A DNA stretch of 64,000 nt from a virus (IMGVR_UViG_3300033182_000581:105381-169380); one strand, 5' to 3'. Shown: positions 30,927 through 61,597, numbered from the stretch's first letter. Made by a program: numbers and translations. The notes: generated from the letters alone by a model not told the origin.

Positions 30927-32867
30927 ATGGCAAAAGAGGCTAAAAAAGATTTAGTACAAAAGGATGTAAAGTTCATTGGTAGAGATTTCGGAGAAATCAG
31001 AAAAAACCTTATTGATTTTACTAAAACGTATTTTCCAAATACATACAATGATTTTAATGAATCATCTCCAGGTATGATGTTTATGGAAATGGCATCCTAT
31101 GTTGGTGATGTACTTTCATTCTATACAGATACACAATTAAGAGAATCTCTTTTAACAAACGCTGAAGAAAAATCAAATTTATTTAATCTTGCAATGGCGT
31201 ATGGGTATAAACCCAAAAATTATGTACCTGCAACAACTACGTTAGATGTATTTCAATTAGTACCATCAAAAGGAAGTGGTGATAATGTAAGACCCGATTA
31301 TGATTATGCTTTAAAAATTGCAAATGGTATGCAGGTTGGTTCATCTGAAAACAATAATGTAAACTTTATTGCAGCAGCAGAAGTAGATTTTTCAGTATCA
31401 TCATCACTCAACCCAACTGATGTAACCGTATATCAAATTGATGCAAATACCAACGAACCAATTTACTACCTACTTAAAAAACAGGTTAAAGTATCAAGTG
31501 GTAAATTAAAAACAAAAGAATTTGAATTTGGTAGTCCAAAGATATATGATAAAATAAAAATAGTAGATGATACTATAATTAGAATCAAATCAATAACTGA
31601 TGATGATGGGGATGAATGGACACACGTACCTTACTTAGCACAAGATACTGTATTCGAACAGGTTGAGAATAATGAAGATAATTCAACTTCATTTGTAGAG
31701 TATAGTGGAGAAACTCCATATCTTTTAGAATTAAAGAGAGTTCCAAAAAGATACATCACAAGAGTTGAGGATAGTGGAGTTATGGTTATTCAGTTTGGTG
31801 CTGGTATATCTCAAAACGCAGATGAAGAATTAGTCCCAAACCCAGATAACGTTGGTTCTAACCTATATAATATCGTTGGTGATTTAGACCAGGGTATTGA
31901 CCCATCCAACTTCTTATATACTAAAACATATGGAGTAGCACCATCCAACACAACTTTAACTGTTGAGTACTTAGTTGGTAATGGTATTGCAGATAACGTT
32001 CCTGCGAAAGATTTAACAAACATTGTATCAATAACATCTACGTTTTTAAATGAACGTAATTTGGATAGCACTCTTACAGAGTTTGTAAGAAATTCAGTAG
32101 CAGTAACAAACCCAGAACCCGCAAGAGGTGGTCGTAGTGAAGAAACATTAGAGGAGATTCGTAACAACGCAATGGCATTCTTCGCAGCACAAAATAGAAC
32201 GGTAACCAGAGAAGATTATGTAATGAGATGTTATGCGCTACCACCACAATTTGGTGCATGTGCAAAAGCATACTTAGTACAAGATTATCAAATTGAAAAT
32301 AAAAAGGCAGATGGCACAACAATTTCATCTGAGATACCAAACCCATTGGCATTAAACTTATATACAATGGGATATACTGATGATAAAAAATTAACACCTT
32401 TAAACCCTGCAACTAAAAATAATCTGAGAAACTATATTTCATATTATAGATTGTTAACAGATGCGGTTAACATTAAAGATGCGCATATCATTAATATTGG
32501 TGTTGATTTTGAAATTACAGTATTACCAGATTACAATTCAAACGAAGTTCTTTTAAGATGTATTGATAAACTAAAAGATTACTTTAATATTGATAATTGG
32601 AGAATCAACGAACCAATTCAATTATCAAAAATATATGTAATGTTGGATGGTGTTAAAGGCGTACAGAGTGTAATTAGACCCGATAGAGATGGTAAGGGTG
32701 GATTACAAATATTCAATAGATTTAACGGAAACTATTCACCAAACAAATATAGTATAAAAAATGCTACAAAGAATGGTGTAATATATCCAGCAAAAGACCC
32801 ATCGATATTTGAGGTCAAATTCCCCAATACCGATATTAGAGGTAAGGTAGTAACACAATCATTCTAA
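30927..32867 (+). CDS. Baseplate wedge subunit gp6-like (J family)
   Basis: 646 residues, the size of T4 gp6 (660). Start FIGRDFGEIRKNLIDFTKTY, then SSPGMMFMEMASYVGDVLSF. The middle PARGGRSEETLEEIRNNAMA, FFAAQNRTVTREDYVMRCYA is the classic gpJ/gp6 motif. It forms the baseplate ring with gp25 and gp53. Followed by AAGGAGATAATA, the ribosome site of the next gene. Confidence 0.9.
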   Translation: MAKEAKKDLVQKDVKFIGRDFGEIRKNLIDFTKTYFPNTYNDFNESSPGMMFMEMASYVGDVLSFYTDTQLRESLLTNAEEKSNLFNLAMAYGYKPKNYVPATTTLDVFQLVPSKGSGDNVRPDYDYALKIANGMQVGSSENNNVNFIAAAEVDFSVSSSLNPTDVTVYQIDANTNEPIYYLLKKQVKVSSGKLKTKEFEFGSPKIYDKIKIVDDTIIRIKSITDDDGDEWTHVPYLAQDTVFEQVENNEDNSTSFVEYSGETPYLLELKRVPKRYITRVEDSGVMVIQFGAGISQNADEELVPNPDNVGSNLYNIVGDLDQGIDPSNFLYTKTYGVAPSNTTLTVEYLVGNGIADNVPAKDLTNIVSITSTFLNERNLDSTLTEFVRNSVAVTNPEPARGGRSEETLEEIRNNAMAFFAAQNRTVTREDYVMRCYALPPQFGACAKAYLVQDYQIENKKADGTTISSEIPNPLALNLYTMGYTDDKKLTPLNPATKNNLRNYISYYRLLTDAVNIKDAHIINIGVDFEITVLPDYNSNEVLLRCIDKLKDYFNIDNWRINEPIQLSKIYVMLDGVKGVQSVIRPDRDGKGGLQIFNRFNGNYSPNKYSIKNATKNGVIYPAKDPSIFEVKFPNTDIRGKVVTQSF

Positions 32868-32877
32868 GGAGATAATA

Positions 32878-34905
32878 ATGATATATAGAATATACGGACA
32901 AAAGGATACTACCATCTACGAACATGGACTTCGTAGAAACCAAAACACAGGTATGGATTCTGTATTGGAGATTACAAAATTCTTCGATGAAGATACTGAT
33001 GAGAATTGGGTGGGTAATAGTAGAATCTTAACTCAGTTTGATTTATCTCCGATATCATCATTAATATCATCTGGTGATATTTCTGGTACTAAAAAATTCT
33101 ATCTAAACCTAACATCGGTTGATGAAGTGGATGTTCGTGCTGAATATCAATTAAACGTACATCAAGTATCTGGTAGTTGGATTAATGGGCTTGGTAAATA
33201 TAATGATAACCCAATAAACACATCGGGATGTAGTTGGGTATATAGAAATGATAATGAACTATGGAGTGTATCATCCGCGCAAACGTTTAATGGTATCAGA
33301 GAGTTTGGAATTCCAACTGAAGGTATCGTATTATACGAAGGATTTTCTGAAGGAACTGGTTCTTTATTCTTAACGCAATCAATCAATGATGTTAGAGGTA
33401 ATACACCAACCATTAACATAACTGATGGTAGATTAATTATATCGGCATCAAATTATGCAGGTACTACATTAGTATTCCCAGCACAATTAGATGAAAACCA
33501 AACCTATGGAGTTCAATTCCAAATCGACCCTGGTTCATTTGATGATATACAATTTAGAGTTTTAGATGCAGATGGTGTTTTAAAAGCAGATGGTGATTAT
33601 GAAGGGTTTGTTGGAGCAATTACAACACCATCAACACAATCGTTTGATTTAACATCCACAACCGCAGGGGAGTATCAATTACAATTTACATTCTTTGATG
33701 GTAGTGGTGATGGTACAACAACAACCGGTTCATTTGATGAAATATATGTTTACGAAAAAACAGGTAATACAATTGCGTATGAAACCTTTGCGTATAACAA
33801 AGGTGGATTTTTATTAAGAAACGTTGTTAAAAATACAAATGATGAACTACCTCGTATGTTTGTATCCGAATCTAAATTAAATTTATATGCAGACAACATC
33901 GGTGGTGGTGACGCAACATTCATTGAAACCTTATCAACTAATTTAGAATATACTTTAAGTTGTGAGGTTGACCCAGGTGATTATCCTGAAATAGGATTTA
34001 CCATATACGACCCAAATGGGTTAAAGTATAGAAATGGTGTTACCGGTTTATCTTCATCATTTACAACACCCCAAACTCAATCAATAGTGTTTACACCACA
34101 GATTGCAGGTGATTATATATTTGCGTACACATTCTTTGATTCTGGTTCTGCAGGTGCTAGTGGTTCATTGGATAACTTTAAAATAGTTTATTCGGGCTCA
34201 ATACCACAACCACCACAAATTGAAGCTGGGTATTATAAAAATAAAGGTGGTGCCACATGGTACACATCATCAGTAAGTAACACCACTATATCCCAAACAT
34301 TCAACAAATACACTAAAGATTTAAATGTTGAAGTTACTGATTATGTTAATGATTGGTTGAGTGGTAGTAGAGAAAATAATGGATTCCTTATCAAAAGACC
34401 CGCAGCTCAAGAAAGTGGTTCTATTAGATATGGTTCATCCAAGTTCTTTTCAAATGAAACCAATACAATTTATGTACCTACATTAGAAGTAAGATGGGTT
34501 ACGGGTTCATTTGAGACTGGTTCATTAAGTGAACTTACTGATGATAACATTACATTATACGTTAAGAATATACTTACTGAATATAAGGAAACTTCTAAAG
34601 CAAAACTTAGAGTGATTGGTAGAGCTAAATATCCACAAAGAACATTCTCTGATACATACCCATATACTACTATTAAATATTTGCCAGAAACTACTTATTA
34701 TCAAGTAAAAGATGTTGAAACCAATTTGGCGTTAATTCCATATGATACAACTTACACAAAAGTAAATTGTGATTCAACTGGAAATTATTTTGATTTTTGG
34801 TTTAATACATTACAACCTGAAAGATTCTATCGTTTTGATTTCAGAGTGGATAGAAACGGAAAGAGTGAGTACTTCGAAGGACCGATATTTAAAGTGGTTA
34901 GATAA
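32878..34905 (+). CDS. Baseplate/tail protein with a DNRLRE-like domain split by two duplicated beta-sandwich inserts
   Basis: 675 residues. The N-terminal part (IYGQKDTTIYEHGLRRNQNT, QLNVHQVSGSWINGLGKYND) and the later part (VTDYVNDWLSGSRENNGFLI, RYGSSKFFSNETNTIYVPTL) together resemble a DNRLRE-type domain. Between them lie two related segments of about 140 residues, near 150-300 and 300-440. Each has a YEGF/YETF start and ends in F-DSGS/GT...GSFDEI. They look like carbohydrate-binding beta-sandwiches. A role at the host-recognising baseplate rim is plausible. Confidence 0.65.
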   Translation: MIYRIYGQKDTTIYEHGLRRNQNTGMDSVLEITKFFDEDTDENWVGNSRILTQFDLSPISSLISSGDISGTKKFYLNLTSVDEVDVRAEYQLNVHQVSGSWINGLGKYNDNPINTSGCSWVYRNDNELWSVSSAQTFNGIREFGIPTEGIVLYEGFSEGTGSLFLTQSINDVRGNTPTINITDGRLIISASNYAGTTLVFPAQLDENQTYGVQFQIDPGSFDDIQFRVLDADGVLKADGDYEGFVGAITTPSTQSFDLTSTTAGEYQLQFTFFDGSGDGTTTTGSFDEIYVYEKTGNTIAYETFAYNKGGFLLRNVVKNTNDELPRMFVSESKLNLYADNIGGGDATFIETLSTNLEYTLSCEVDPGDYPEIGFTIYDPNGLKYRNGVTGLSSSFTTPQTQSIVFTPQIAGDYIFAYTFFDSGSAGASGSLDNFKIVYSGSIPQPPQIEAGYYKNKGGATWYTSSVSNTTISQTFNKYTKDLNVEVTDYVNDWLSGSRENNGFLIKRPAAQESGSIRYGSSKFFSNETNTIYVPTLEVRWVTGSFETGSLSELTDDNITLYVKNILTEYKETSKAKLRVIGRAKYPQRTFSDTYPYTTIKYLPETTYYQVKDVETNLALIPYDTTYTKVNCDSTGNYFDFWFNTLQPERFYRFDFRVDRNGKSEYFEGPIFKVVR

Positions 34906-36089
34906 TGGCAGAAACAAAAGTAGATAAAGTTGCAGAACAAATTGAGAGAAGAGATATTCGAAGAAATTTCTCTAATCAAATTATATCATATGGATTACCT
35001 GAAGATGGTAATTTAAAATATGGGTATAAGAGATTGCCTGCAAAATCGGTAGTGTATCCAACTCTGGCATATGACAAAACCATTGATAGATTATCATCAG
35101 AGTTAATATCAAATTCGGGTGATTTAAGAATTACTGAACAAACATTAAATTATATAAAATTCTTAACACCATCTGGCGAGGCTGAATTCGAAGATACATT
35201 TAGTGGTAGATATGCAATAACTAATGGTGCAACTGAAGTTCCAGGTGGCGGTACATCTTGGACTGGATATAGAGATAATCACTGGATTAATCCATATGTA
35301 GCACCTGGTGATGTTACAACTTATCTTGACTATAGAAATAATTTTAGACACGGCGGGTATCGTACCATTCCGTTTGATGATACAGAAAAAGGGCCTGATT
35401 TAAAAAATGGTGGTTATGTAATTACACCCGAACTTATTGAAAGTGGTAAGAGTTTAAAACTCACTGCAATAATCGGAATCGCAAATGAACTAAAAAATAG
35501 TGCTGGTAACAATTTGGATAGGTCTGTACTATATAAGTTCAAATTTAATAGAATTAGAAAACCATATGAATCAAATTTCCCCGATAACTTAGGAAACGCG
35601 AAGTATGAGTCATTTGATAGAGGTGAATATGGATTTATAAAAGTAGAGTTTGATGTATTAAATTCTAAAATGCAAGTTGGTGATATTTGGGAACTACAAG
35701 GACAAGTAACGACGGGTTTCAGAGGATGTTTCTTATATGGTAACAACTCTATATTTAAAGTAGATGTAATAGAAACTCCATTAGTTCCAACCACAACTAA
35801 CAGAGCACCAAGTAGAATAACCAAAATGCAACCATCCCACATAAAAACATCACCTGCAACTACGGGTTCACCAACCATCTCTGATGGTGGTTCAGTAGCC
35901 GGAGTTGGGAGTACAAACCCTAGAAGTGGTGCTGGGACTAGAAGTGGTGCTGGAGCAAGTTCATCATCTAACAGTGGTGATGGTTCATCTAGAAGAGGTC
36001 GTAACAGTGGTGATGGTTCATCTAGAAGAGGTCGTAACAGTGGTGATGGTTCATCTAGAAGAGGTCGTAAAAGCAAAGCTACGCTTTAA
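34905..36089 (+). CDS. Tail/baseplate structural protein with C-terminal repeats (394 aa)
   Basis: The first 290 residues look like a folded structural domain (DNHWINPYVAPGDVTTYLDY, YGFIKVEFDVLNSKMQVGDI). Residues about 315-394 are Gly/Ser/Arg-rich low complexity, with three copies of NSGDGSSRRGR. The basic, flexible tail could bind DNA, RNA or the cell surface. Its start shares one base with the previous stop. Confidence 0.65.
   Translation: MAETKVDKVAEQIERRDIRRNFSNQIISYGLPEDGNLKYGYKRLPAKSVVYPTLAYDKTIDRLSSELISNSGDLRITEQTLNYIKFLTPSGEAEFEDTFSGRYAITNGATEVPGGGTSWTGYRDNHWINPYVAPGDVTTYLDYRNNFRHGGYRTIPFDDTEKGPDLKNGGYVITPELIESGKSLKLTAIIGIANELKNSAGNNLDRSVLYKFKFNRIRKPYESNFPDNLGNAKYESFDRGEYGFIKVEFDVLNSKMQVGDIWELQGQVTTGFRGCFLYGNNSIFKVDVIETPLVPTTTNRAPSRITKMQPSHIKTSPATTGSPTISDGGSVAGVGSTNPRSGAGTRSGAGASSSSNSGDGSSRRGRNSGDGSSRRGRNSGDGSSRRGRKSKATL
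35970..36068 (+). repeat. Three tandem 33-bp repeats
   Basis: Units at 35970-36002, 36003-36035 and 36036-36068, essentially identical in DNA, coding for NSGDGSSRRGR. Identity in DNA points to recent expansion. Confidence 0.9.
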
Positions 36090-36100
36090 TAGGAAAGTAT

Positions 36101-39100
36101 ATGGCAATAGATAGATATCAAAAACCAGAAATACTAACTGATGTGAAAACACCAGTAGATAGTGTTGCCGTATATTCTTTTTTAGATACGGCACGTATCA
36201 ATAAAACTTCATTGGTATTAACTTCAGAATTGTTAAACCAATCATATGTACATAAACACGTTTATTCTGAGAATAATTTATTACATTCATCGGTATCACC
36301 ACTACAATACGAAGTAACTTCCGAAGAAAATGCAGATTATACATATGATATTTTATTAACACCTGAAAAGGATGTTAGAAGGGTGGGTGCTGAACGAGGT
36401 ACATACAGCATTGTATATAATTTTCTAAAACCATTCTCATCAGAATTAAAAATATTAAACATATCTGCAGATTCTACTGAGATTGAATTGGAAGTAGATA
36501 ATCCAAACTACAGTCTGAAAAAATTATATGATTTAGTAAATAGTAGTAAAAACTATAAAGATAATTTAGTTTTAAATTTTGGTAAGAACAATCTATTCAC
36601 AATAACGGATATTGGTTTTGCTAATAACGAGTCGATTGGTGAGCAATTGCGTTGGCCAAAACATCCAAATGGTAAATACAACGGATTTGATGTTACATAC
36701 TTTCCATCTGAAGAAGATGGTGATAGAAACATTTGGATAGAGGTTTATAAAAAAACCAGATTAACTACTGGTAGGGCTACATCATTCACACCAATAGTAG
36801 ATGAAAAAACTTGGGAAGTTAAATTTGAACCATTAAGAGATGTTAATGGTACTCAAGTATTTTTCTCAAAAAATTCACAAGAATTTGATAGAAGATATGA
36901 AATAGAAGAAGGATTGAGAATACCTGATGATATATTTGATAATATATACTATGGTAATCATCCATTTTCTAAATTTAAAATATTTAACCCATACACATCA
37001 GATACAAATAAGTTAAAAAATGTTGTTGTAAAATTATATACGGAATTACCAGCTGAGTTTGAAAACAAAATCCCAAAGATATCACTTTCTTTAAGAGAGG
37101 ATTATATCGAAAGAGTATTAGTATACCCATACATCAAAGAAGAGGAATATGAAGATTTTTCATATGCAAATTTTGATATTGATATGGGTAATTATGGTAA
37201 ATCACAAGGTACTGATTTCAAAACTTGGAACTCTCTTTTAGATACAACCCTATCAACATCTCAACAAATTATTGATAAGTATATTAGTGGTTCTTTTGGT
37301 GAAGTGAATTTAAATATAGATTACAGTAATTTTAAAAACTTTGTAAATTATTCATCTGCAGTTGAAAGGGTTAACAATTTAAAATATAAATTAGAGTTAA
37401 TAGAATCGTATGATGCTAGAATTAATACGTTAAGTTCAGTAAGTGGTTCACAAGCATTAACTAACATATCTCAATCCTTAAACAGACGAGCTAATGTTAT
37501 TAGTGGTATGGATGGTTGGGAACGTTGGATGTATTATGAAACCACAGGTTCTTTATATACACATTATAGTGCATCATCATATGTTATAAGTCCCTGGCCA
37601 CATTACGATGAACATCCTAAAAAGCTTTATAGTGTTACATCATCACAGGCAATATCACATTTCAACGGATTGATTGACTCTGCAAGTATATACGATACTT
37701 TAAATGATGCAAGATTAACAAAAGTAATTCCTGCATCAATTGTTGAAGAACCATTGAATAGAGATTATGTGTTGTTTATTGATATGATTGGACACCACTT
37801 TGATATTACATGGAGTTACATCAAAGCACTAACATCAATCAATGAAAGAGAAGAACACCCATACGATGGTATGCCAAATGAGATGTTATATGATGTGGCA
37901 AAATCTATGGGGTGGAAACTAACACATGGTAAAGACCGTTCTGATTTATGGAAGTTTGCAGGTGGTACTGATAAGTTTGGTAATTACATTCAAACAGGTT
38001 CTTTACAAACTAAATCAGATGAACAAATCAATTATGAGGTTTGGAGAAGAATTGTAAACAACATTCCATACTTACTTAAAACAAAGGGTTCTGCACGGGC
38101 AGTAAAAGCATTGATTGCAACATATGGTATCCCACAATCATTCTTATCAATCAGAGAATATGGTGGGCCTATGATTGAAGATGTTAGACCTATTTGGGAA
38201 CATGATAGATTCGTATACCATCTTAGAATGGATACTAATAATTATATTACCACACCGTGGGATAAGATTGCAGATATTAACCCAAAAACATACTTAAACA
38301 GAGACCCTAATTCAATTGATACTATTGAAATTCAGTTCCAACAAAATTTAATTAGAACCTCATCGTTACTACACAAAGGTTCTGATTTTGCAGTTTTGTT
38401 AGAACCAATATCAAGAACATCTGGTAGGGGTAATATTCATTTTTATTTAAGTGGCAGTGGTGGTTACAAATCAGCATCCATTGATGATGTTCCTGTTTTT
38501 GATTCTAAGATGGGTACTCTATTAGTTCAGAGAGAATCATCGGTAGATGATATTACAAAAAATAATGAATATAAAATTCAATATAGAAAAAATGTAAAAG
38601 ATAGAATCAGTACATCGAAATCCGCGAGTATTGATATCGACGGTGCAACTGAATCATCATACAACGCGGCGTGGACTGGTAGTGGGGATGTAACATTTAG
38701 TAATACATTACCAACAGGCGGACCATCTATTTGGGCTGATGCAGAGTATATGAGTGGTTCTATTCAAGAGATTAGATATTGGGCTCAACCTCTTAAAGAT
38801 ATTGTAGTAGATGAACACACCCTTTCAAGAGAAACTTATCATGGTAATTCTGCAACTTCATCTTACTTTGATTTAAAGTTTAGATTCATACCAGATTCTC
38901 AATTAAAAACAGTTACAAATCCAGATGGGATTCTCTCACAACATCCTAATCAGAGAATTACTGAAACTGATAGTGGGTACATTTTATCAGCATCTTTATA
39001 CAACTTTGAAAGAGATGATTTAAGAGGTGTAACCGAAGAGTACTACACTAAAGTTCCATCTGCTGGTGCTAATAACATTATGAATAATAAGGTTAGAGTT

Positions 39101-40477
39101 GAATCTAATCGATTGACTGGAATCTTAGACCCAGATAAAAAGAAGGAAAAAGCACAATACGATTCAGCGCCTGTTGATTCAAATCAGGTTGGTGTTTATA
39201 TGTCTGCTACAAAGATGTATAATGAGGATATCTACAATCACACTGGATATTTTGAGATTGATGATTATATTGGCAACCCTGATAGAAGGCCAGGTTATAC
39301 TGAACAAAACGAAGAATTAGATTATGTTCGTAGGCAGGTATTTAAAAAGTATAGTTCTAAAAACTTAATCAATGATACAATCGATATGTTGGCAAGATAC
39401 GATTTCTCAGTATTTGAACAAATCAGACAAACAATGCCAGCAAGGGTTGATTACAATTCAGGTATCTTAATTGAACCACACATCTTAGAAAGACCTAAGA
39501 TGAAATCAAAAACAAATGTTTCATACACAAACCCACAATATGATGTGGTACTTCCTGCTATTGATAGGCCGGTATCATCAGAATATATTAATTATGAAAC
39601 TACAATTGTAAATACCCAAAAAAGCCAAAGCGCCGAATACATTCTTTATGAAACTACGATACCACATCAAACAGTGGTTGTCGCTACGAAGCATGATTAC
39701 ACATCAAGTATTGATACCACACAACTTCGTAATGTAAGTGCACAAAAAGATGACATAGAATCAGTAGGTAATCCTAATATTAAAAATATGTATTCTCCAT
39801 CAACATACAGATACACAATTCTATTCCCAACTGCATCTAATATTGATATTGGGTTTGGTGGTGGTTGGACTACTGGTTCAAATGGGTATTGGAATTACAA
39901 TGTAACATCATCCAATGCATTAGATGGAAAACCATCGAAGTATGCACTTAAAAATATTTACTTTTACAATACTGAATTATCAGCATCATTACGATTAAGT
40001 AATTCATCATCATTAGTACCTGCATCGGTATCAACTGATGAACTACCACTATCGATTGAGAATCTCAGATATTTAGGTTGTAAGATGACATCCGATTCTT
40101 TAACAACAAATTCACCTGATACACCAGATGGTAGACCTGTAATCGAAGTATTTGAAGCAGACCCGAATGTACTTATCTATACATCACAAACTGCAGAAGA
40201 GGGTAATTTGGATGTAGATACCTCTACAAATCTACCAACTCTTAAATTAGAAGATTTAAAGGTTAATGAAGATATCAAATGGAGTAGAGAACAAGAATAT
40301 AAAGAAGCTGTTGCTAAGTTTAGAAAAGAAATCGAAAAACTAATTCAGATAGAAAATGGTAGACGTTCAGAGTTTGATTTGAGATACGAACAAGAAAAAA
40401 TGAGATTTGAATTAGAACAACAACGAAGAGAAGAGTTTGATGTAATTAACCGACCTAATAGAATTATGGATGTTTAA
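36101..40477 (+). CDS. Very large tail/baseplate protein (1458 aa)
   Basis: A multi-domain structural protein. The segment INYEVWRRIVNNIPYLLKTK, GSARAVKALIATYGIPQSFL, SIREYGGP is a pattern I know from marine myovirus tail proteins. A concanavalin/LamG-like region follows (FAVLLEPISRTSGRGNIHFY ... WADAEYMSGSIQEIRYWAQP). The last 80 residues are a coiled coil (EQEYKEAVAKFRKEIEKLIQ). Role likely in the baseplate periphery or fibre attachment. Confidence 0.7.
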   Translation: MAIDRYQKPEILTDVKTPVDSVAVYSFLDTARINKTSLVLTSELLNQSYVHKHVYSENNLLHSSVSPLQYEVTSEENADYTYDILLTPEKDVRRVGAERGTYSIVYNFLKPFSSELKILNISADSTEIELEVDNPNYSLKKLYDLVNSSKNYKDNLVLNFGKNNLFTITDIGFANNESIGEQLRWPKHPNGKYNGFDVTYFPSEEDGDRNIWIEVYKKTRLTTGRATSFTPIVDEKTWEVKFEPLRDVNGTQVFFSKNSQEFDRRYEIEEGLRIPDDIFDNIYYGNHPFSKFKIFNPYTSDTNKLKNVVVKLYTELPAEFENKIPKISLSLREDYIERVLVYPYIKEEEYEDFSYANFDIDMGNYGKSQGTDFKTWNSLLDTTLSTSQQIIDKYISGSFGEVNLNIDYSNFKNFVNYSSAVERVNNLKYKLELIESYDARINTLSSVSGSQALTNISQSLNRRANVISGMDGWERWMYYETTGSLYTHYSASSYVISPWPHYDEHPKKLYSVTSSQAISHFNGLIDSASIYDTLNDARLTKVIPASIVEEPLNRDYVLFIDMIGHHFDITWSYIKALTSINEREEHPYDGMPNEMLYDVAKSMGWKLTHGKDRSDLWKFAGGTDKFGNYIQTGSLQTKSDEQINYEVWRRIVNNIPYLLKTKGSARAVKALIATYGIPQSFLSIREYGGPMIEDVRPIWEHDRFVYHLRMDTNNYITTPWDKIADINPKTYLNRDPNSIDTIEIQFQQNLIRTSSLLHKGSDFAVLLEPISRTSGRGNIHFYLSGSGGYKSASIDDVPVFDSKMGTLLVQRESSVDDITKNNEYKIQYRKNVKDRISTSKSASIDIDGATESSYNAAWTGSGDVTFSNTLPTGGPSIWADAEYMSGSIQEIRYWAQPLKDIVVDEHTLSRETYHGNSATSSYFDLKFRFIPDSQLKTVTNPDGILSQHPNQRITETDSGYILSASLYNFERDDLRGVTEEYYTKVPSAGANNIMNNKVRVESNRLTGILDPDKKKEKAQYDSAPVDSNQVGVYMSATKMYNEDIYNHTGYFEIDDYIGNPDRRPGYTEQNEELDYVRRQVFKKYSSKNLINDTIDMLARYDFSVFEQIRQTMPARVDYNSGILIEPHILERPKMKSKTNVSYTNPQYDVVLPAIDRPVSSEYINYETTIVNTQKSQSAEYILYETTIPHQTVVVATKHDYTSSIDTTQLRNVSAQKDDIESVGNPNIKNMYSPSTYRYTILFPTASNIDIGFGGGWTTGSNGYWNYNVTSSNALDGKPSKYALKNIYFYNTELSASLRLSNSSSLVPASVSTDELPLSIENLRYLGCKMTSDSLTTNSPDTPDGRPVIEVFEADPNVLIYTSQTAEEGNLDVDTSTNLPTLKLEDLKVNEDIKWSREQEYKEAVAKFRKEIEKLIQIENGRRSEFDLRYEQEKMRFELEQQRREEFDVINRPNRIMDV

Positions 40478-42307: not shown

Positions 42308-43402
42308 ATGGCAATTTTACCAGCAGGTTCGTTTAATACATCAAAGAGAGTATATACGGCATTTAAAGTAGGGGATGTTGTAGAAGGTGGTGTAGAAAAA
42401 GTAACAAGAGGTTTATGGAGTGGTAACGTAGGAACGTTAACTTCATTCTACACTTCTTCAGCACAATCATCTACTCAGAAACAATATTATTATGAGATTT
42501 TTGATGGGATATCAACAAACTCAACATCAGAAGCACAATTCTCAGTAACGTATGGTCATAATGCGGGTAGTGGTTCTTTAGGACAGAATGAAGATTCTCC
42601 TTCAAACGCCATCTATTCCCAATATGCACAAATCCTACTTCCAGACCAACAGAGAACATTTACATTTAATGATGTTTCGTCTGAGCACATTTACGCTATT
42701 AACATCAATAGAGCTAGATTGAAAGATAGGTTAGACCCAGGTAACTTCCAATTGAATTTAATCGAATTATCAGGTAGTGCTGAACTTGTTTACAACACAG
42801 GTTCTAATGTAGCAGTATCATCATCTAATAAAGTTGTTAAGTTGATTGATGATAGTGGTGATACTCAACAGGCTGCAACTCAAATTGGTAGAGTTTACAA
42901 TTTAGTATCAGGTTCTATCAATAGTGGTGTTTACTCACCTAAAACTTACTATGGTTCAGTTTATCCAGAACAAGGTGTTATTATCCTAAATGCAGATACA
43001 TTGGATACAGAACTATCGTTTGGCTCTGTAACCGCATCAAACACAAATGGTGATAACGCATACAAACTATTAACGTCTATTAGTGGTGCCGCATCTTATA
43101 GTGAAGGTTTGAGTGGTGTGGATTATGGATTTGCTGCAAGAAATGAAGAAAGAGTACAATCAACATTCTATTTCGTAAGAGCTAAGAATGGTGAATACAA
43201 CTTCTCAAATAATCCATCTTTTGTAACTGGTTCAAATGGTTCGTTTAAACAACCAACATTTGCAAACAATCCAAAAACATATATAACAACTGTTGGATTA
43301 TATAACAGTTCACAAGAATTATTAGCAGTAGCTAAATTATCTCAACCAATTCTTAAATCATTCTCTAATGAAGTATTGGTTAAGGTTAAATTAGATTTCT
43401 AA
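42308..43402 (+). CDS. Tail fibre/structural protein (364 aa)
   Basis: Beta-rich. The last 80 residues (ARNEERVQSTFYFVRAKNGE ... YITTVGLYNSSQELLAVAKL) are related to the end of the next protein, so both carry a common C-terminal module. Ser/Gly/Thr-rich like phage fibres. Purine-rich ribosome site AAAAGGAAATAG. Confidence 0.7.
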   Translation: MAILPAGSFNTSKRVYTAFKVGDVVEGGVEKVTRGLWSGNVGTLTSFYTSSAQSSTQKQYYYEIFDGISTNSTSEAQFSVTYGHNAGSGSLGQNEDSPSNAIYSQYAQILLPDQQRTFTFNDVSSEHIYAININRARLKDRLDPGNFQLNLIELSGSAELVYNTGSNVAVSSSNKVVKLIDDSGDTQQAATQIGRVYNLVSGSINSGVYSPKTYYGSVYPEQGVIILNADTLDTELSFGSVTASNTNGDNAYKLLTSISGAASYSEGLSGVDYGFAARNEERVQSTFYFVRAKNGEYNFSNNPSFVTGSNGSFKQPTFANNPKTYITTVGLYNSSQELLAVAKLSQPILKSFSNEVLVKVKLDF

Positions 43403-46731: not shown

Positions 46732-47571
46732 ATGAATGAATATAACAGAATTTGTAATCAATGTGGTAATACAATTATATATAAGACAAAATCACAATTT
46801 AATAATGCTGAAAAACATAATAGGATATGTAAGCGATGTGCTAATGTAAATCGTAATAAAGATAGAACTATACCACATCCAGATGTATTAACTAAAAGAT
46901 GTAATCAATGTGGTAAGGAGCATGAATTTTCATCAAAAGTTAAATATATTCAGTCAAAACCAACTGAAAAATATTTATGTAAATCATGTGCTGTTAAAAA
47001 AGCACATACTGGTAAAACTATGTCGGAACAAACTAAATATGATATTGGTACTAAGGTTAAATCAGCATGGGGACGTGGTTGTTATGAATACGCTACAAAA
47101 TGTTCTAGTGAAAGATGGTCTGGTGAAAATAATCCAATGTATAATTCTAATAGAACTGGTTCGTTAAATCCATTCTATAAAAAAACACATACGGATGATA
47201 CCATACAAACTATTATTAGCAAAAACACCAACCCATCAAACGAAACTCGCCTAAAAATGCGTAAATCCGCTATTGCTAGAATACAGTTGGGTGAAAATGG
47301 TGAAATGATACCATCATACAACCCATCTTCAATACCAATCATAGAGGCAAAAGCAAGAGAATTGGGTATAACCGATTTACAGCATGCTGAAAACGGTGGT
47401 GAATACCACATAAAAGAACTTGGATATTGGGTCGATGGATACAGTAAAGAAAAAAACATAGTAATAGAATATTATGAACCACATCACAAACGGCAAGTTG
47501 AAAAAGATAAACGAAGGGAAAGTGAAATTACAGAATATTTGGGATGTAAATTCATAATAATTAAAGAATAA
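46732..47571 (+). CDS. Homing endonuclease, Vsr-like (EDxHD-type) with zinc ribbons and NUMOD3-like motifs
   Basis: 279 residues. Two CxxC...CxxC ribbons lie at residues about 5-36 (CNQCGN ... CKRCAN) and 60-87 (CNQCGK ... CKSCAV). NUMOD3-like repeats follow near 125-145 (SGENNPMYNSNRTGSLNPFY). The C-terminal catalytic domain SIPIIEAKARELGI, QHAENGGEYHIKELGYWVDG, NIVIEYYEPHHK and EYLGCKFIIIKE is clearly homologous to that of the endonuclease at 59686. Freestanding between primase and gp47; it would cut alleles lacking it at the insertion site. Confidence 0.85.
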   Translation: MNEYNRICNQCGNTIIYKTKSQFNNAEKHNRICKRCANVNRNKDRTIPHPDVLTKRCNQCGKEHEFSSKVKYIQSKPTEKYLCKSCAVKKAHTGKTMSEQTKYDIGTKVKSAWGRGCYEYATKCSSERWSGENNPMYNSNRTGSLNPFYKKTHTDDTIQTIISKNTNPSNETRLKMRKSAIARIQLGENGEMIPSYNPSSIPIIEAKARELGITDLQHAENGGEYHIKELGYWVDGYSKEKNIVIEYYEPHHKRQVEKDKRRESEITEYLGCKFIIIKE

Positions 47572-58104: not shown

Positions 58105-59637
58105 ATGGGGAATCTAATTAAAGAGTGGGTTAAGGAAATCTTAACTGAGGATATAAAGAAAAAGGTAGTTGTTTACGCAGGTAGATTTCAACCATTCCAT
58201 AAAGGGCATTATGGAACATACCAGCATTTGGTAAAACAATTTGGTAAAGATAATGTTTACATTGGAACATCCAATAAAACTGATAACATCAAATCACCTT
58301 TTAAATTCAAAGAAAAGAAAATGATTATGATGAAGATGTTTGGTATCCCATCAAGCAAAATCGTTGAAATTAAAAACCCATATGCACCTAAAGAAATTAT
58401 TGGTAAGTTCGATAAGAACACAACTGCGTTCGTAACCGTTGTTGGTGAAAAGGATAGATACAGATTAAAAGGAAAATACTTTGAACCATATCATCCAGAT
58501 AGAATCGATAAAGGTTATGAAGATAAAGGGTATGTTTATGTAGCACCTGAAAGTGGTGGTGGTATGAGTGGAACTGAAGCAAGAAGGCTTTTATCACAAG
58601 GTAGTGAATCTGATAAAATTACTGGATTCAAAAAGGTGTATGATGGTAAGTTCGATTCTAAAATCTTTACATTGATTACAACAAGATTAACAAAAATATT
58701 TGGTAAGATGGAATCATTCTTATCAACATTTGATTTTAACAAACTAATCTCAGAAGCATCGGCAACTCCTGCAAGTGGAAAATCAGTTGTAGATGACGGA
58801 CCAGGATTTACATATGGAAATTCAAAAACATATAAGAAAATCGGTGATGATGCAGCAGAGGCATTGGGTTGGCAAGTTGTTGATTACATTTTAGGAAATG
58901 ATGATGATTCAATCTACGCAGATGATGCAAGGGAGTTAGAAGATAAGTATCCAGTATCATATTTCCCATCTGGTAAAGCCGGTTTGGATGCACAATCTCA
59001 GAGATATATTGATTTAAAAGGTACAAAAGCATACAAAGCATGGTCAGACCATATTAAAGGGGTGGCACTTGTACTTGGATACAAATTGGTTGATTTCTTA
59101 GATGCTGAGCAAGGTATTGAAGATACTAAAAAAGCACCAACAAAAGAATTACCACCTGAAGAAAGATTAAAAGATGGTAATGATAAGACTGAAATAATGA
59201 AAGAAGGTTTGATTATGGAAGGTGGTGCATACGGACATATGAATCACCCATTTGATATTGAAATGAATCTAACCTTTGGTGATTTAAAAGCTATTATATC
59301 AAACGCATTAAATGGTAACTTAGAATTTGCAAGAGAGAAATGTGTTTATGGCGATGCAATCATACAAACTGAAAACAATGGTGAAATGACACTTAAAGAG
59401 TTTGTGGATGGTGATGTGAATGATAGAGTGTTAGCTTATGATGAGATTACTCAAAAGAATGAATACAAAGATGTAATGGCTAAACTGAATAATGATGATA
59501 TTGATGAATGGTTAGAGATTGAGTTGGCAGATGGTAGAACTATTCAGGTAACACCAAATCATAGAATATTTGTAGAGGGTATTGGGTATGTTCAAGCAAA
59601 AGACTTAACCACGGATATGGAATTAAAAATAGTATAA
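58105..59637 (+). CDS. Nucleotidyltransferase N-extein (HxGH adenylyltransferase domain) fused to split-intein N-half
   Basis: 510 residues. Residues 20-165 are a NadM/NMNAT-like adenylyltransferase: VYAGRFQPFHKGHYGTY with HKGH at 32-35, and SGTEARRL at 155-162 in place of ISSTxxR. Residues 225-412 form a second, less clear domain, ending NLEFAREK. From Cys413 on (98 residues) the sequence is intein: CVYGDAIIQT, then GRTIQVTPNHRIFV (block B with TxxH). The chain stops there. The C-intein and remaining extein are at 60410. Lys412 is the presumed adenylated Lys of a KxDG site completed only by splicing. The N-domain would make NAD or a related dinucleotide. Confidence 0.88.
   Translation: MGNLIKEWVKEILTEDIKKKVVVYAGRFQPFHKGHYGTYQHLVKQFGKDNVYIGTSNKTDNIKSPFKFKEKKMIMMKMFGIPSSKIVEIKNPYAPKEIIGKFDKNTTAFVTVVGEKDRYRLKGKYFEPYHPDRIDKGYEDKGYVYVAPESGGGMSGTEARRLLSQGSESDKITGFKKVYDGKFDSKIFTLITTRLTKIFGKMESFLSTFDFNKLISEASATPASGKSVVDDGPGFTYGNSKTYKKIGDDAAEALGWQVVDYILGNDDDSIYADDARELEDKYPVSYFPSGKAGLDAQSQRYIDLKGTKAYKAWSDHIKGVALVLGYKLVDFLDAEQGIEDTKKAPTKELPPEERLKDGNDKTEIMKEGLIMEGGAYGHMNHPFDIEMNLTFGDLKAIISNALNGNLEFAREKCVYGDAIIQTENNGEMTLKEFVDGDVNDRVLAYDEITQKNEYKDVMAKLNNDDIDEWLEIELADGRTIQVTPNHRIFVEGIGYVQAKDLTTDMELKIV
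59341..59634 (+). other. Split intein, N-terminal half
   Basis: 98 codons beginning with Cys1. Block A is CVYGDAIIQT; block B is GRTIQVTPNHRIFVEGIGYV with Thr and His at the positions that aid the N-S shift. Length is close to known split-intein N-halves (about 90-100). Confidence 0.9.
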
Positions 59638-59662
59638 CTCCCATCGGTTTTTTCACAACTTA

Positions 59663-59672
59663 CATATTTATT
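59663..59672 (+). promoter_or_regulatory. ATATTTAT motif (candidate late-type promoter)
   Basis: CATATTTATT, 13 nt before the endonuclease ATG; the AAAGGA ribosome site follows it. Confidence 0.35.
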
Positions 59673-59685
59673 ATAAAGGATAGAT

Positions 59686-60420
59686 ATGAAAGAGAAATGT
59701 AAATATTGTGGAAAAGAGATTGAGATAAAAGGAAAACTTAGCATGAATGGTCATATAACAAATTGTAGTTCATTTAAAAAATGGCGTGATACGACATTTA
59801 ACTATGATATGTTATATACTGAATATATTGTAAATGGAAAATCAGCATTACAAATTGCAAATGAAAATGGTTGGAGTTCATCAACTATTATAAATAAGCA
59901 ACTTAAACGGGTTGGTATTGATGTTCGTAATGTGAAACAATCGCATAAAATGGATTTGTATAAAGAACGCATAGAGAATACTAATATTGATAGATATGGT
60001 GCAGTTAATCCATTATCAAGGGGAACTAAACCATTTGAGAAACGAAATAAGACGGTTAAAGAGAAGTATGGTGTGGATAATGTTTTTCAAGCGGAACATA
60101 TAAAAGATATTATTAGAAAAACAGATGCATATAAAGAATTATTCCCAAATTATAATAGACAATCAATTCCTATCATAGAACAATATGGTAAAGAACATGG
60201 ATATAACTTTCAGCACGCAGAAAATGGTGGTGAATATTATGTAGATGGGCTAGGATATTATTTGGATGGGTATGATAAAGATAAAAATGTTGCAATTGAA
60301 ATAGATGAACCGTTCCATTTTACAAAAGATGGTAAATTAAGAAAAAAAGATATAATACGACAACGAAAGATTGAAGAAAAACTTGGTTGTAAGTTTATAA
60401 GGATAAAATATGAAGATTAA
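59686..60420 (+). CDS. Vsr-like (EDxHD-type) homing endonuclease between split-intein halves
   Basis: 244 residues. N-terminal zinc finger CKYCGKEIEI ... HITNC (4-27), a helix-turn-helix near 45-70 (SALQIANENGWSSSTIINKQ), then the catalytic part: RQSIPIIEQYGKEHGYNFQH, AENGGEYYVDGLGYYLDGYD, NVAIEIDEPFHF and KLGCKFIRIKYED. This is the Vsr-related nuclease fold described for fractured genes with split inteins. It is freestanding, not fused to the intein. Its last 11 nt overlap the C-intein start, so the two are coupled. Confidence 0.88.
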   Translation: MKEKCKYCGKEIEIKGKLSMNGHITNCSSFKKWRDTTFNYDMLYTEYIVNGKSALQIANENGWSSSTIINKQLKRVGIDVRNVKQSHKMDLYKERIENTNIDRYGAVNPLSRGTKPFEKRNKTVKEKYGVDNVFQAEHIKDIIRKTDAYKELFPNYNRQSIPIIEQYGKEHGYNFQHAENGGEYYVDGLGYYLDGYDKDKNVAIEIDEPFHFTKDGKLRKKDIIRQRKIEEKLGCKFIRIKYED

Positions 60421-60514
60421 ATCAATAAAACCGATAAATAAAGTTCAAACCAGATATGATTTGACAGTTGATGATTTTTCATGCTATTATGTAAATGGAA
60501 TATTGGTTCATAAT
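60410..60514 (+). other. Split intein, C-terminal half
   Basis: 35 codons with ATG start, ending His-Asn before Thr+1. The length equals known split-intein C-halves. Confidence 0.9.
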
Positions 60515-61597
60515 ACAGATGGCCAAGCATTGGCAATTAGTTGGAGAGATGATAAAGGTTTGATTGCGGCAAGAAATAAAGGACATCTAAAAAATAGTGG
60601 TGAAAACGCATTGGATATTAGTGGAGTTGCTTCTAAGTTTCAAGGTAGAGGTGGATTAACTGATGCATATAACTTCGCTATGAAAGATTTAACTACTGCA
60701 ATCAAAGGATTATCAAAAGCACAAAGAGATAAGATATTCAAACAAGGTTCATCATTTATGAACTTAGAAGTTATTTACCCTACATCAGTTAATGTTGTAC
60801 CTTATGGTCAACCACTATTGGTATTTCACGGAACTATGGATTATAATGAAGATGGTGAAGCCATTGGTGCTGATACATCTACCGCAAGAACATTGGCAGG
60901 TATGATTAAACAAATCAATGCAAACGTTCAAAAAAATTATACAATACAAGGACCACCTGTAACTGAATTACCAAAGAACAAAAACCTTTCAGCAATGCAG
61001 GGTAAGTTTAATTCACAATTGAATAAACTTCAAAAAGAATTTAAACTAAAAGATTCAGATGGTGTTGCAAATTATCATCAGGCGTGGTGGGAACAATGGG
61101 TTGATAAAAACTCACCATCACCATTAGATAATAAAACCAAAATGGGATTGGTAAAGCGATGGGCTTTTTATGATAAATCATTCCGATTGGATAATAAGAA
61201 TATTAAAGATTCTAAAGTATTAGATTGGGCAAAGAAAACTGATAAACAAGACCAAGCAAAAATATCAAAAGATAACCTTCGTAAATTTGAAGATATCTTC
61301 TTAGGTGTTGGCGCTGAAGTACTTTCGTTTATGAGTTCAGTATTGGTAGTTAATCCTGATTCTGCATTAAGAAATATGAAATCTGAATTAGATAAGACCG
61401 TAAAGGCAGTTCAGAAATCAGGTGATGTTAAGAAGATTGAAAAACTTAGAATGGAATTAGAACGACTTGCCGCAATTGGTGGTAAGGATAAGATTGTACC
61501 AAACGAAGGTATTGTGTTTACTTACAAAGGTAACACATACAAATTGACTGGAGCATTCGCATCATTGAACCAAATATTAGGTTTAATGTATTTTTAA
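60410..61597 (+). CDS. Split-intein C-half fused to ligase-like nucleotidyltransferase C-extein
   Basis: 395 residues. The first 35 are the C-intein: KVQTRYDLTVDDFSCYYV (block F) and NGILVHN (block G). The C-extein starts with Thr: TDGQALAISWRDDKGLIAAR, NKG, matching motif I (after the Lys supplied by the N-extein) and Ia of covalent nucleotidyltransferases. MNLEVIYP resembles motif III, and EGIVFTYKGNTYKLTG near the end resembles motifs IV and V. The spliced product would be 412 + 360 = 772 residues. Whether it is a DNA/RNA ligase, a capping-like enzyme or something else is not decided. Confidence 0.85.
   Translation: MKIKSIKPINKVQTRYDLTVDDFSCYYVNGILVHNTDGQALAISWRDDKGLIAARNKGHLKNSGENALDISGVASKFQGRGGLTDAYNFAMKDLTTAIKGLSKAQRDKIFKQGSSFMNLEVIYPTSVNVVPYGQPLLVFHGTMDYNEDGEAIGADTSTARTLAGMIKQINANVQKNYTIQGPPVTELPKNKNLSAMQGKFNSQLNKLQKEFKLKDSDGVANYHQAWWEQWVDKNSPSPLDNKTKMGLVKRWAFYDKSFRLDNKNIKDSKVLDWAKKTDKQDQAKISKDNLRKFEDIFLGVGAEVLSFMSSVLVVNPDSALRNMKSELDKTVKAVQKSGDVKKIEKLRMELERLAAIGGKDKIVPNEGIVFTYKGNTYKLTGAFASLNQILGLMYF

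What the first reader, a model, noticed from the sequence alone, without database searches (positions are those of the whole stretch)
58105..61597. Split intein placed exactly in the KxDG active site of a two-domain nucleotidyltransferase, with a Vsr-like endonuclease gene wedged between the halves
Seen: the first gene ends in a 98-residue N-intein (Cys1, block B TPNH), and the second begins with a 35-residue C-intein ending HN|T. Joining the exteins gives AREK+TDGQ, i.e. the KxDG motif of covalent nucleotidyltransferases, with RNKG, LEVIYP and EGIVF...YKLTG further on as motifs Ia, III, IV/V. Known: split inteins separated by EDxHD/Vsr-like homing genes (fractured genes) were described from environmental phage sequence. 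New here, as far as I can tell: the host protein, which joins an HxGH NMNAT-like domain to a ligase-like domain, with activity gated by trans-splicing.
Basis: partly seen in the sequence, partly recalled or inferred. Interest (0 to 1): 0.87.

Follow-up and report, generated by a model that had tools for sequence, protein, structure and literature searches.

The report
Split-intein cassette in phage ligase-like gene
A large aquatic phage has one gene cut in two by a mobile cassette (half an intein, a DNA-cutting enzyme gene, the other half), placed exactly inside the catalytic motif of a two-domain enzyme; the cassette also carries a conserved copy of its own target site just in front of the cutter gene, probably a switch that keeps the cutter in check.

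Summary
Gene 58105-59637 ends in a 98-aa N-intein. Gene 60410-61597 begins with a 35-aa C-intein. A 244-aa homing-endonuclease gene lies between them. Both intein halves pass NCBI's curated intein cut-offs; joined, they best match the split intein NrdJ-1. About 150 relatives are uninterrupted with nothing added or missing at K|TDG, and 14 other contigs carry the same cassette at the same site. The motifs of covalent nucleotidyltransferases are conserved across 50 ligase-domain relatives, and RNA ligases lead the fold search, though weakly. The N-domain is a HIGH-type (NMNAT/PPAT-like) nucleotidylyltransferase. This is a new host gene for the known 'fractured gene' arrangement.

'Activity gated by trans-splicing' is not supported as regulation: the cassette is patchy, mobile and decaying, like a selfish element.

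New here: between the N-intein stop and the endonuclease start lies an inverted 14-nt copy of the uninterrupted homing site (59641-59654), conserved in all six cassette lineages; its core varies only at the threonine wobble, apart from one end base in one lineage. Many split TerL cassettes carry a copy of their own site at the same place. This parallels the I-TevI autorepressor operator. Splicing, cleavage and repression are untested.

The parts
58105..59637 (+). N-half gene: N-extein (58105-59340) plus IntN
   Evidence: ORF; intact homologues align over the whole extein
58162..58668 (+). HIGH-type nucleotidylyltransferase domain (GRFQPFHKGH 58180-58209; MSGTEAR 58564-58584)
   Evidence: Pfam CTP_transf_like 26.6 bits (cut-off 21); NMNAT/NadM profiles; Foldseek NadM/NMNAT/PPAT
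59338..59340 (+). Lys codon of KxDG, last N-extein residue
   Evidence: invariant K409 in alignment A1; zero-gap empty sites
59341..59634 (+). IntN, 98 aa, Cys1, block B TPNH; stop at 59635-59637
   Evidence: TIGR01445 35.6 bits over cut-off; Pfam Hint/Intein_splicing; dN/dS about 0.08-0.43
59641..59654 (+). CCATCGGTTTTTTC = reverse complement of the joined homing site GAAAAAACCGATGG (K|TDG); proposed HEN operator
   Evidence: 14/14 match to GARAARACNGAYGG, 0 of 5000 dinucleotide shuffles, only tile >=13/14 in the window, conserved in six lineages
59664..59671 (+). ATATTTAT promoter-like motif before the HEN gene
   Evidence: upstream of 10 of 61 genes vs 0.9 expected; 0.05% of ORF-internal 60-mers; 19 of 20 copies on + strand
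59686..60420 (+). Homing endonuclease gene: N-terminal CxxC..HxxxC finger-like and helix-turn-helix-like segments, C-terminal EDxHD/Vsr-like nuclease region (60136-60417)
   Evidence: PHROG homing endonucleases; invariant E183, D194, E205, E208, H211, D222, R225; other members hit Vsr-like nuclease profiles weakly; dN/dS 0.13-0.34
60410..61597 (+). C-half gene: IntC plus C-extein; start overlaps the HEN stop
   Evidence: ORF; same overlap in all cassettes examined
60410..60514 (+). IntC, 35 aa ending HN
   Evidence: TIGR01443 19.7 bits over cut-off
60515..60523 (+). TDG of KxDG, first C-extein residues (+1 Thr)
   Evidence: D411, G412 invariant
60566..60583 (+). AARNKG, motif Ia-like
   Evidence: ARN invariant in 50 sequences
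60764..60781 (+). LEVIYP, motif III-like
   Evidence: E126 of A4 invariant
61505..61519 (+). EGIVF, motif IV
   Evidence: E372 G373 V375 F376 of A4 invariant
61538..61552 (+). YKLTG, motif V (Lys 61541-61543)
   Evidence: K384, T386, G387 of A4 invariant

Best explanation
A 'fractured gene': a mobile split-intein cassette (IntN, free-standing EDxHD/Vsr-like homing endonuclease, IntC) sits in a phage gene for a HIGH-nucleotidylyltransferase + ligase-like protein, exactly between the catalytic Lys and the xDG of motif I. Inferred mechanism: the two precursors associate through IntN/IntC and trans-splice through Cys1, the terminal Asn and +1 Thr, restoring the KTDG active site, so the insertion costs the phage little. 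The endonuclease cuts the uninterrupted K|TDG site of co-infecting relatives and repair copies the cassette in. The endonuclease probably also binds an inverted copy of that site beside its own promoter-like motif and represses itself (this last part about 0.45-0.5 likely). Shown here: the anatomy, intein and active-site residues, exact empty sites, patchy distribution, purifying selection and conservation of the site copy. Inferred: splicing, cleavage, homing, repression, and the host enzyme's reaction.
For: Intein profiles over curated cut-offs; NrdJ-1 as closest solved intein. Cys1, TPNH, HN and +1 Thr intact in all cassettes examined. Zero-gap empty sites. Cassettes at one site in 15 contigs / six lineages. 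Cassette more alike than host: window vs L019 is 82/86/97% in IntN/HEN/IntC but 70% in the C-extein, and the window's nearest host relative L005 is empty. Purifying selection on both intein halves and HEN. HEN stop codon in L093/L095 with intact intein, as expected of a homing life cycle. Active-site motifs; predicted C-domain (pLDDT 82.7) with covalent ligases as nearly all of its best PDB matches. Site copy; I-TevI precedent PMC2988022.
Against: No experiment. PDB fold matches of the C-domain are individually weak (best E 0.015, TM <=0.28 normalised by query), and no Pfam, PHROG or NCBIfam family covers it. The HEN has no match among solved structures. Co-conversion of flanks was not visible. 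The site copy could be a relic, not an operator, and some TerL cassettes lack it.
Confidence: 0.9

Rival explanations
1. Regulatory gating: the phage keeps the split intein as a switch that delays activation of the ligase-like enzyme until both halves are made.
For: The insertion separates Lys from xDG, so neither half can have a complete motif I.
Against: Most relatives lack the cassette, including the closest, and occurrences are scattered. A third gene encodes an endonuclease. A regulatory role would predict retention along lineages.
Confidence: 0.06
2. The site copy at 59641-59654 is a relic of how the endonuclease gene entered the intein gene (cut at a site-like sequence followed by repair), not an operator.
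For: A relic of invasion would place a site-like sequence at the ORF boundary. TerL cassettes carry the copy in the opposite orientation, and HEN-less TerL cassettes L300, L329, L361 keep it.
Against: The core is unchanged in six lineages whose synonymous differences are mostly 0.4-0.7. The varying position inside the core is the one where the real target varies. It lies next to a promoter-like motif.
Confidence: 0.35
3. The two halves are separate functional proteins or the gene is broken; the intein parts no longer splice.
For: No splicing experiment exists.
Against: All catalytic intein residues are kept and dN/dS is well below 1 in IntN and IntC across lineages. The ligase motifs on both sides are preserved.
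Confidence: 0.04
4. Assembly artefact or chance frame arrangement.
For: The source is a metagenomic virus contig.
Against: Same arrangement in 15 contigs of many metagenomes.
Confidence: 0.01

Closest known systems
Fractured genes with split inteins and EDxHD endonucleases (Dassa et al. 2009, doi 10.1093/nar/gkp095; cited in PMC7090010, PMC12350094; text not held here)
   Same: IntN - free-standing Vsr-like endonuclease - IntC in one orientation; typical split position (about 98/35 aa); intein closest to NrdJ-1
   Different: Host gene and insertion site: KxDG of a HIGH-NTase/ligase-like fusion. The conserved homing-site copy before the endonuclease; I could not check whether that paper noted one
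Split TerL inteins of aquatic phages (AceL-TerL type, named from memory)
   Same: Related endonuclease; same gene order; in five contigs the TerL and the NMNAT-ligase cassettes occur together; many have a site copy at the HEN 5' end
   Different: Short IntN (about 25-35 aa), other insertion site (QECD|C), site copy in direct orientation
I-TevI of the T4 td intron (PMC2988022)
   Same: Homing-site-like sequence at the promoter just upstream of the endonuclease ORF; there shown to be an autorepressor operator
   Different: Group I intron and GIY-YIG enzyme; here split intein and EDxHD-like enzyme; copy inverted, adjacent to rather than overlapping the promoter-like motif; no binding data
T4 Rnl1/Rnl2, archaeal Rnl3, Naegleria Rnl, fungal Trl1
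   Same: KxDG and spaced R, E, EG, K motifs; similar predicted core
   Different: Very low sequence identity; extra helical C-terminal region; fused to a HIGH-type domain
NadM/NadR-type NMN adenylyltransferases
   Same: GRFQPFHxGH and SGTxxR motifs
   Different: Below equivalog cut-offs; fused to a ligase-like domain instead of Nudix or a kinase

Membership tests
Intein (class 1, split) | Cys/Ser at position 1 and block A | tested here: met
   Cys1; TIGR01445 over cut-off
Intein (class 1, split) | Block B TxxH | tested here: met
   TPNH, invariant in seven cassettes
Intein (class 1, split) | C-terminal HN and +1 Cys/Ser/Thr | tested here: met
   VHN|T; TIGR01443 over cut-off; same in all cassettes
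Intein (class 1, split) | Precise removal leaves an intact host protein | tested here: met
   zero-gap empty alleles
Intein (class 1, split) | Trans-splicing activity | not testable with these tools
   needs co-expression
Fractured gene arrangement | Host gene in two ORFs with IntN and IntC flanking a free-standing endonuclease ORF | tested here: met
EDxHD/Vsr-like homing endonuclease | Conserved E, D, H, D catalytic residues | tested here: met
   E183, D194, E205, H211, D222 invariant in 13 sequences; exact mapping on I-Bth0305I not checked
EDxHD/Vsr-like homing endonuclease | Profile or structure match to Vsr/I-Bth0305I | tested here: inconclusive
   no PDB match; one member each hits MTES_1575 and DUF559 weakly; phage homing-endonuclease PHROGs
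Covalent nucleotidyltransferase (ligase) superfamily | KxDG motif I with motifs III, IV, V | tested here: met
   invariant K, DG, E, EG, K
Covalent nucleotidyltransferase (ligase) superfamily | Fold | tested here: inconclusive
   nearly all of the 30 best PDB matches are RNA/DNA ligases but E >=0.015 and TM <=0.28 by query length
NMN adenylyltransferase | HxGH and SxTxxR motifs, NMNAT fold | tested here: met
NMN adenylyltransferase | Equivalog-level match / NMN specificity | tested here: not met
   33.7 bits at best against cut-offs in the hundreds; substrate unknown
I-TevI-like autorepressing homing endonuclease | Homing-site copy at the endonuclease promoter | tested here: met
   (promoter is a motif only)
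I-TevI-like autorepressing homing endonuclease | Endonuclease binds the copy and represses | not testable with these tools
   needs gel shift and reporter

The most novel reading that the evidence does not exclude
Split-intein homing cassettes carry a copy of their own empty target site beside the endonuclease promoter, used by the EDxHD endonuclease to repress itself. This operator arrangement arose independently of I-TevI and is shared, in different orientations, by cassettes of two different split inteins (NMNAT-ligase and TerL).
Probability: 0.45. Interest if true: 0.65.

Novelty: new member of a known kind. Interest (0 to 1): 0.55.

Why it matters
It adds a host gene to fractured genes, at the catalytic lysine motif of a ligase-like enzyme, and gives six diverged natural versions of one NrdJ-1-like split intein with Thr at +1, useful for protein engineering. 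It brings out a large, nearly unannotated aquatic phage family (HIGH-nucleotidylyltransferase + ligase-like domain). The conserved homing-site copy makes a direct test possible: whether endonucleases of split inteins regulate themselves through a mimic of their own target, as I-TevI does.

Tried and rejected
Regulatory gating: rejected on patchy distribution. Chance reading of HN|T or KxDG: rejected by profiles and empty sites. RNA-level splint (the element can pair with both exon ends): considered; it mismatches the own junction at the wobble base in every cassette and the protein route suffices; not pursued. Sequence search of the host protein against the PDB gave only the N-domain convincingly; the C-domain profile gave ribosomal S6 matches, judged composition noise. 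The first full-length fold was poor (pLDDT 60), so the C-domain was folded alone. The first TerL script picked the site copy itself as exon 1 in several loci; redone. The PADLOC hit of the HEN to mREase_II is read as a shared nuclease fold. Dassa 2009 is not held.

Full report
What was checked. The three ORFs are as reported. The first protein's last 98 residues and the second protein's first 35 are intein halves by NCBI's curated models: TIGR01445 at 35.6 bits against a cut-off of 24.5, and TIGR01443 at 19.7 against 15.6. Pfam agrees. Joined, they match the solved split intein NrdJ-1 best (E=1.3e-11). The split position, about 98/35, is close to the typical one stated in PMC12707363.

Empty and filled sites. 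A scan of viral contigs with the C-half gave 80 loci out of 361 relatives. In the loci the exteins are contiguous with no base added or missing at K|TDG, apart from the window record, L019, an end-truncated locus, and two distant phage records with a 9-nt indel. A second set gave 79 of 79 (some contigs are in both sets). A scan with the endonuclease found L019 again and 13 more cassette loci, all at the same codon of the same gene. With the window that makes 15 contigs in about six lineages. The window's closest host relative, L005 (95% in the C-extein), is empty. The closest cassette, L019, is 82/86/97% identical in IntN/HEN/IntC but 70% in the C-extein. On a tree of C-exteins the cassette needs at least three changes on well-supported branches. 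In L093 and L095 the endonuclease has an in-frame stop while both intein halves are intact. This is the pattern of a homing element. Flank identity profiles showed no clear co-conversion tract.

Selection. Pairwise dN/dS is 0.08-0.43 in IntN, 0.02-0.39 in IntC and 0.13-0.34 in the endonuclease, between lineages with synonymous differences mostly of 0.4-0.7. All cassettes examined keep Cys1, TPNH, HN and Thr+1. Splicing is therefore very likely functional, but was not tested.

The host protein. It is a phage-specific, mostly aquatic family; hits in bacterial genomes were four contigs of metagenome-assembled genomes, presumably phage. The N-domain has the HIGH-family motifs GRFQPFHxGH and SGTxxR. 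It matches NMNAT/NadM models below equivalog cut-offs and NMNAT/PPAT structures. The C-domain has no Pfam, PHROG or NCBIfam match. It nevertheless keeps K-x-D-G, AARN, E (LEV), EG-x-V/I-F and K (YKxTG) across 50 sequences. A model of this domain (pLDDT 82.7) finds RNA ligases and related covalent ligases as nearly all of its 30 best PDB matches, each weak (best E 0.015). The same architecture occurs in unannotated viral proteins, including one of Synechococcus phage S-PM2. I take it as a covalent nucleotidyltransferase, most likely RNA ligase-like. The reaction and the reason for the fusion are unknown; tRNA or RNA repair against host defence is a guess from general knowledge of phage RNA repair (PMC9503650). 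The gene follows a 2122-aa fibre-like gene with a Peptidase_S74 domain, and in relatives lies near TerL.

The homing-site copy. Between the IntN stop and the endonuclease start the window has CCATCGGTTTTTTC (59641-59654), the reverse complement of GAAAAAACCGATGG, the uninterrupted Lys|Thr-Asp-Gly target (identical to the empty sites of L036, L023 and L027). It matches the degenerate site GARAARACNGAYGG at 14/14 in five of six lineages and 13/14 in L098. None of 5000 dinucleotide shuffles per lineage does so, and no other tile of the window reaches 13. In the intergenic alignment this stretch and the following CAA are almost the only conserved block. Inside the core the varying position is the Thr wobble, the position at which real targets vary; L098 also differs at the terminal base. 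The copy ends 31-38 nt before the endonuclease ATG. In the window an ATATTTAT motif follows. That motif lies upstream of 10 of 61 window genes against 0.9 expected, so it is probably a promoter.

Is it general? Split TerL cassettes with a related endonuclease were examined. Many diverged ones carry a direct-orientation copy of CARGARTGYGAY|TGYG (14-16 of 16) at the 5' end of the endonuclease ORF. Those where the endonuclease ORF overlaps or nearly abuts the IntN stop (L308, L312, L341, L343, L360, L364) lack it. In TerL the bases after the junction are few, and both intein and extein begin with TGT, so there the copy is less specific than in the window. T4's I-TevI has such a copy (15/20) over its promoter, binds it as well as the homing site and represses itself (PMC2988022). 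I therefore favour an operator, with a relic of endonuclease-gene invasion as the main rival.

Novelty. Split inteins around EDxHD genes are known. I found no report of this host gene or insertion site, or of a site copy in a split-intein cassette, within the papers searchable here; the founding paper is not held, so the last point is open.

Noticed in passing
46732-47571: Second, free-standing gene with a C-terminal half 41% identical to the cassette endonuclease and a NUMOD3 motif, between structural genes and with its own ATATTTAT motif.
   Followed up: partly
L019, L093, L095, L096, L097 contigs: The same phages carry two fractured genes a few kb apart: the NMNAT-ligase gene and TerL (L298, L301, L300, L304, L303).
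   Followed up: partly
L098:1468-2370: Endonuclease enlarged to about 300 aa by extra sequence in its middle region (DUF7487-like).
   Followed up: no
L018, L021, L075, L079, L084 and others, upstream of the C-domain: Host protein variants carry insertions of up to about 3 kb around N-extein residue 345-365, i.e. between the two domains; not identified.
   Followed up: no
window, e.g. 7541, 10851, 11772, 12920, 25255, 45737: GTATATT[T/A]GTA occurs 7 times on + and never on -; resembles the Bacteroidota TAnnTTTG promoter element, hinting at a Bacteroidota host.
   Followed up: partly
32878-34905, 34905-36089, 36101-40477, 42308-43402: Large structural-region proteins without any PHROG match, next to a T4-like baseplate wedge protein at 30927-32867.
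   Followed up: no
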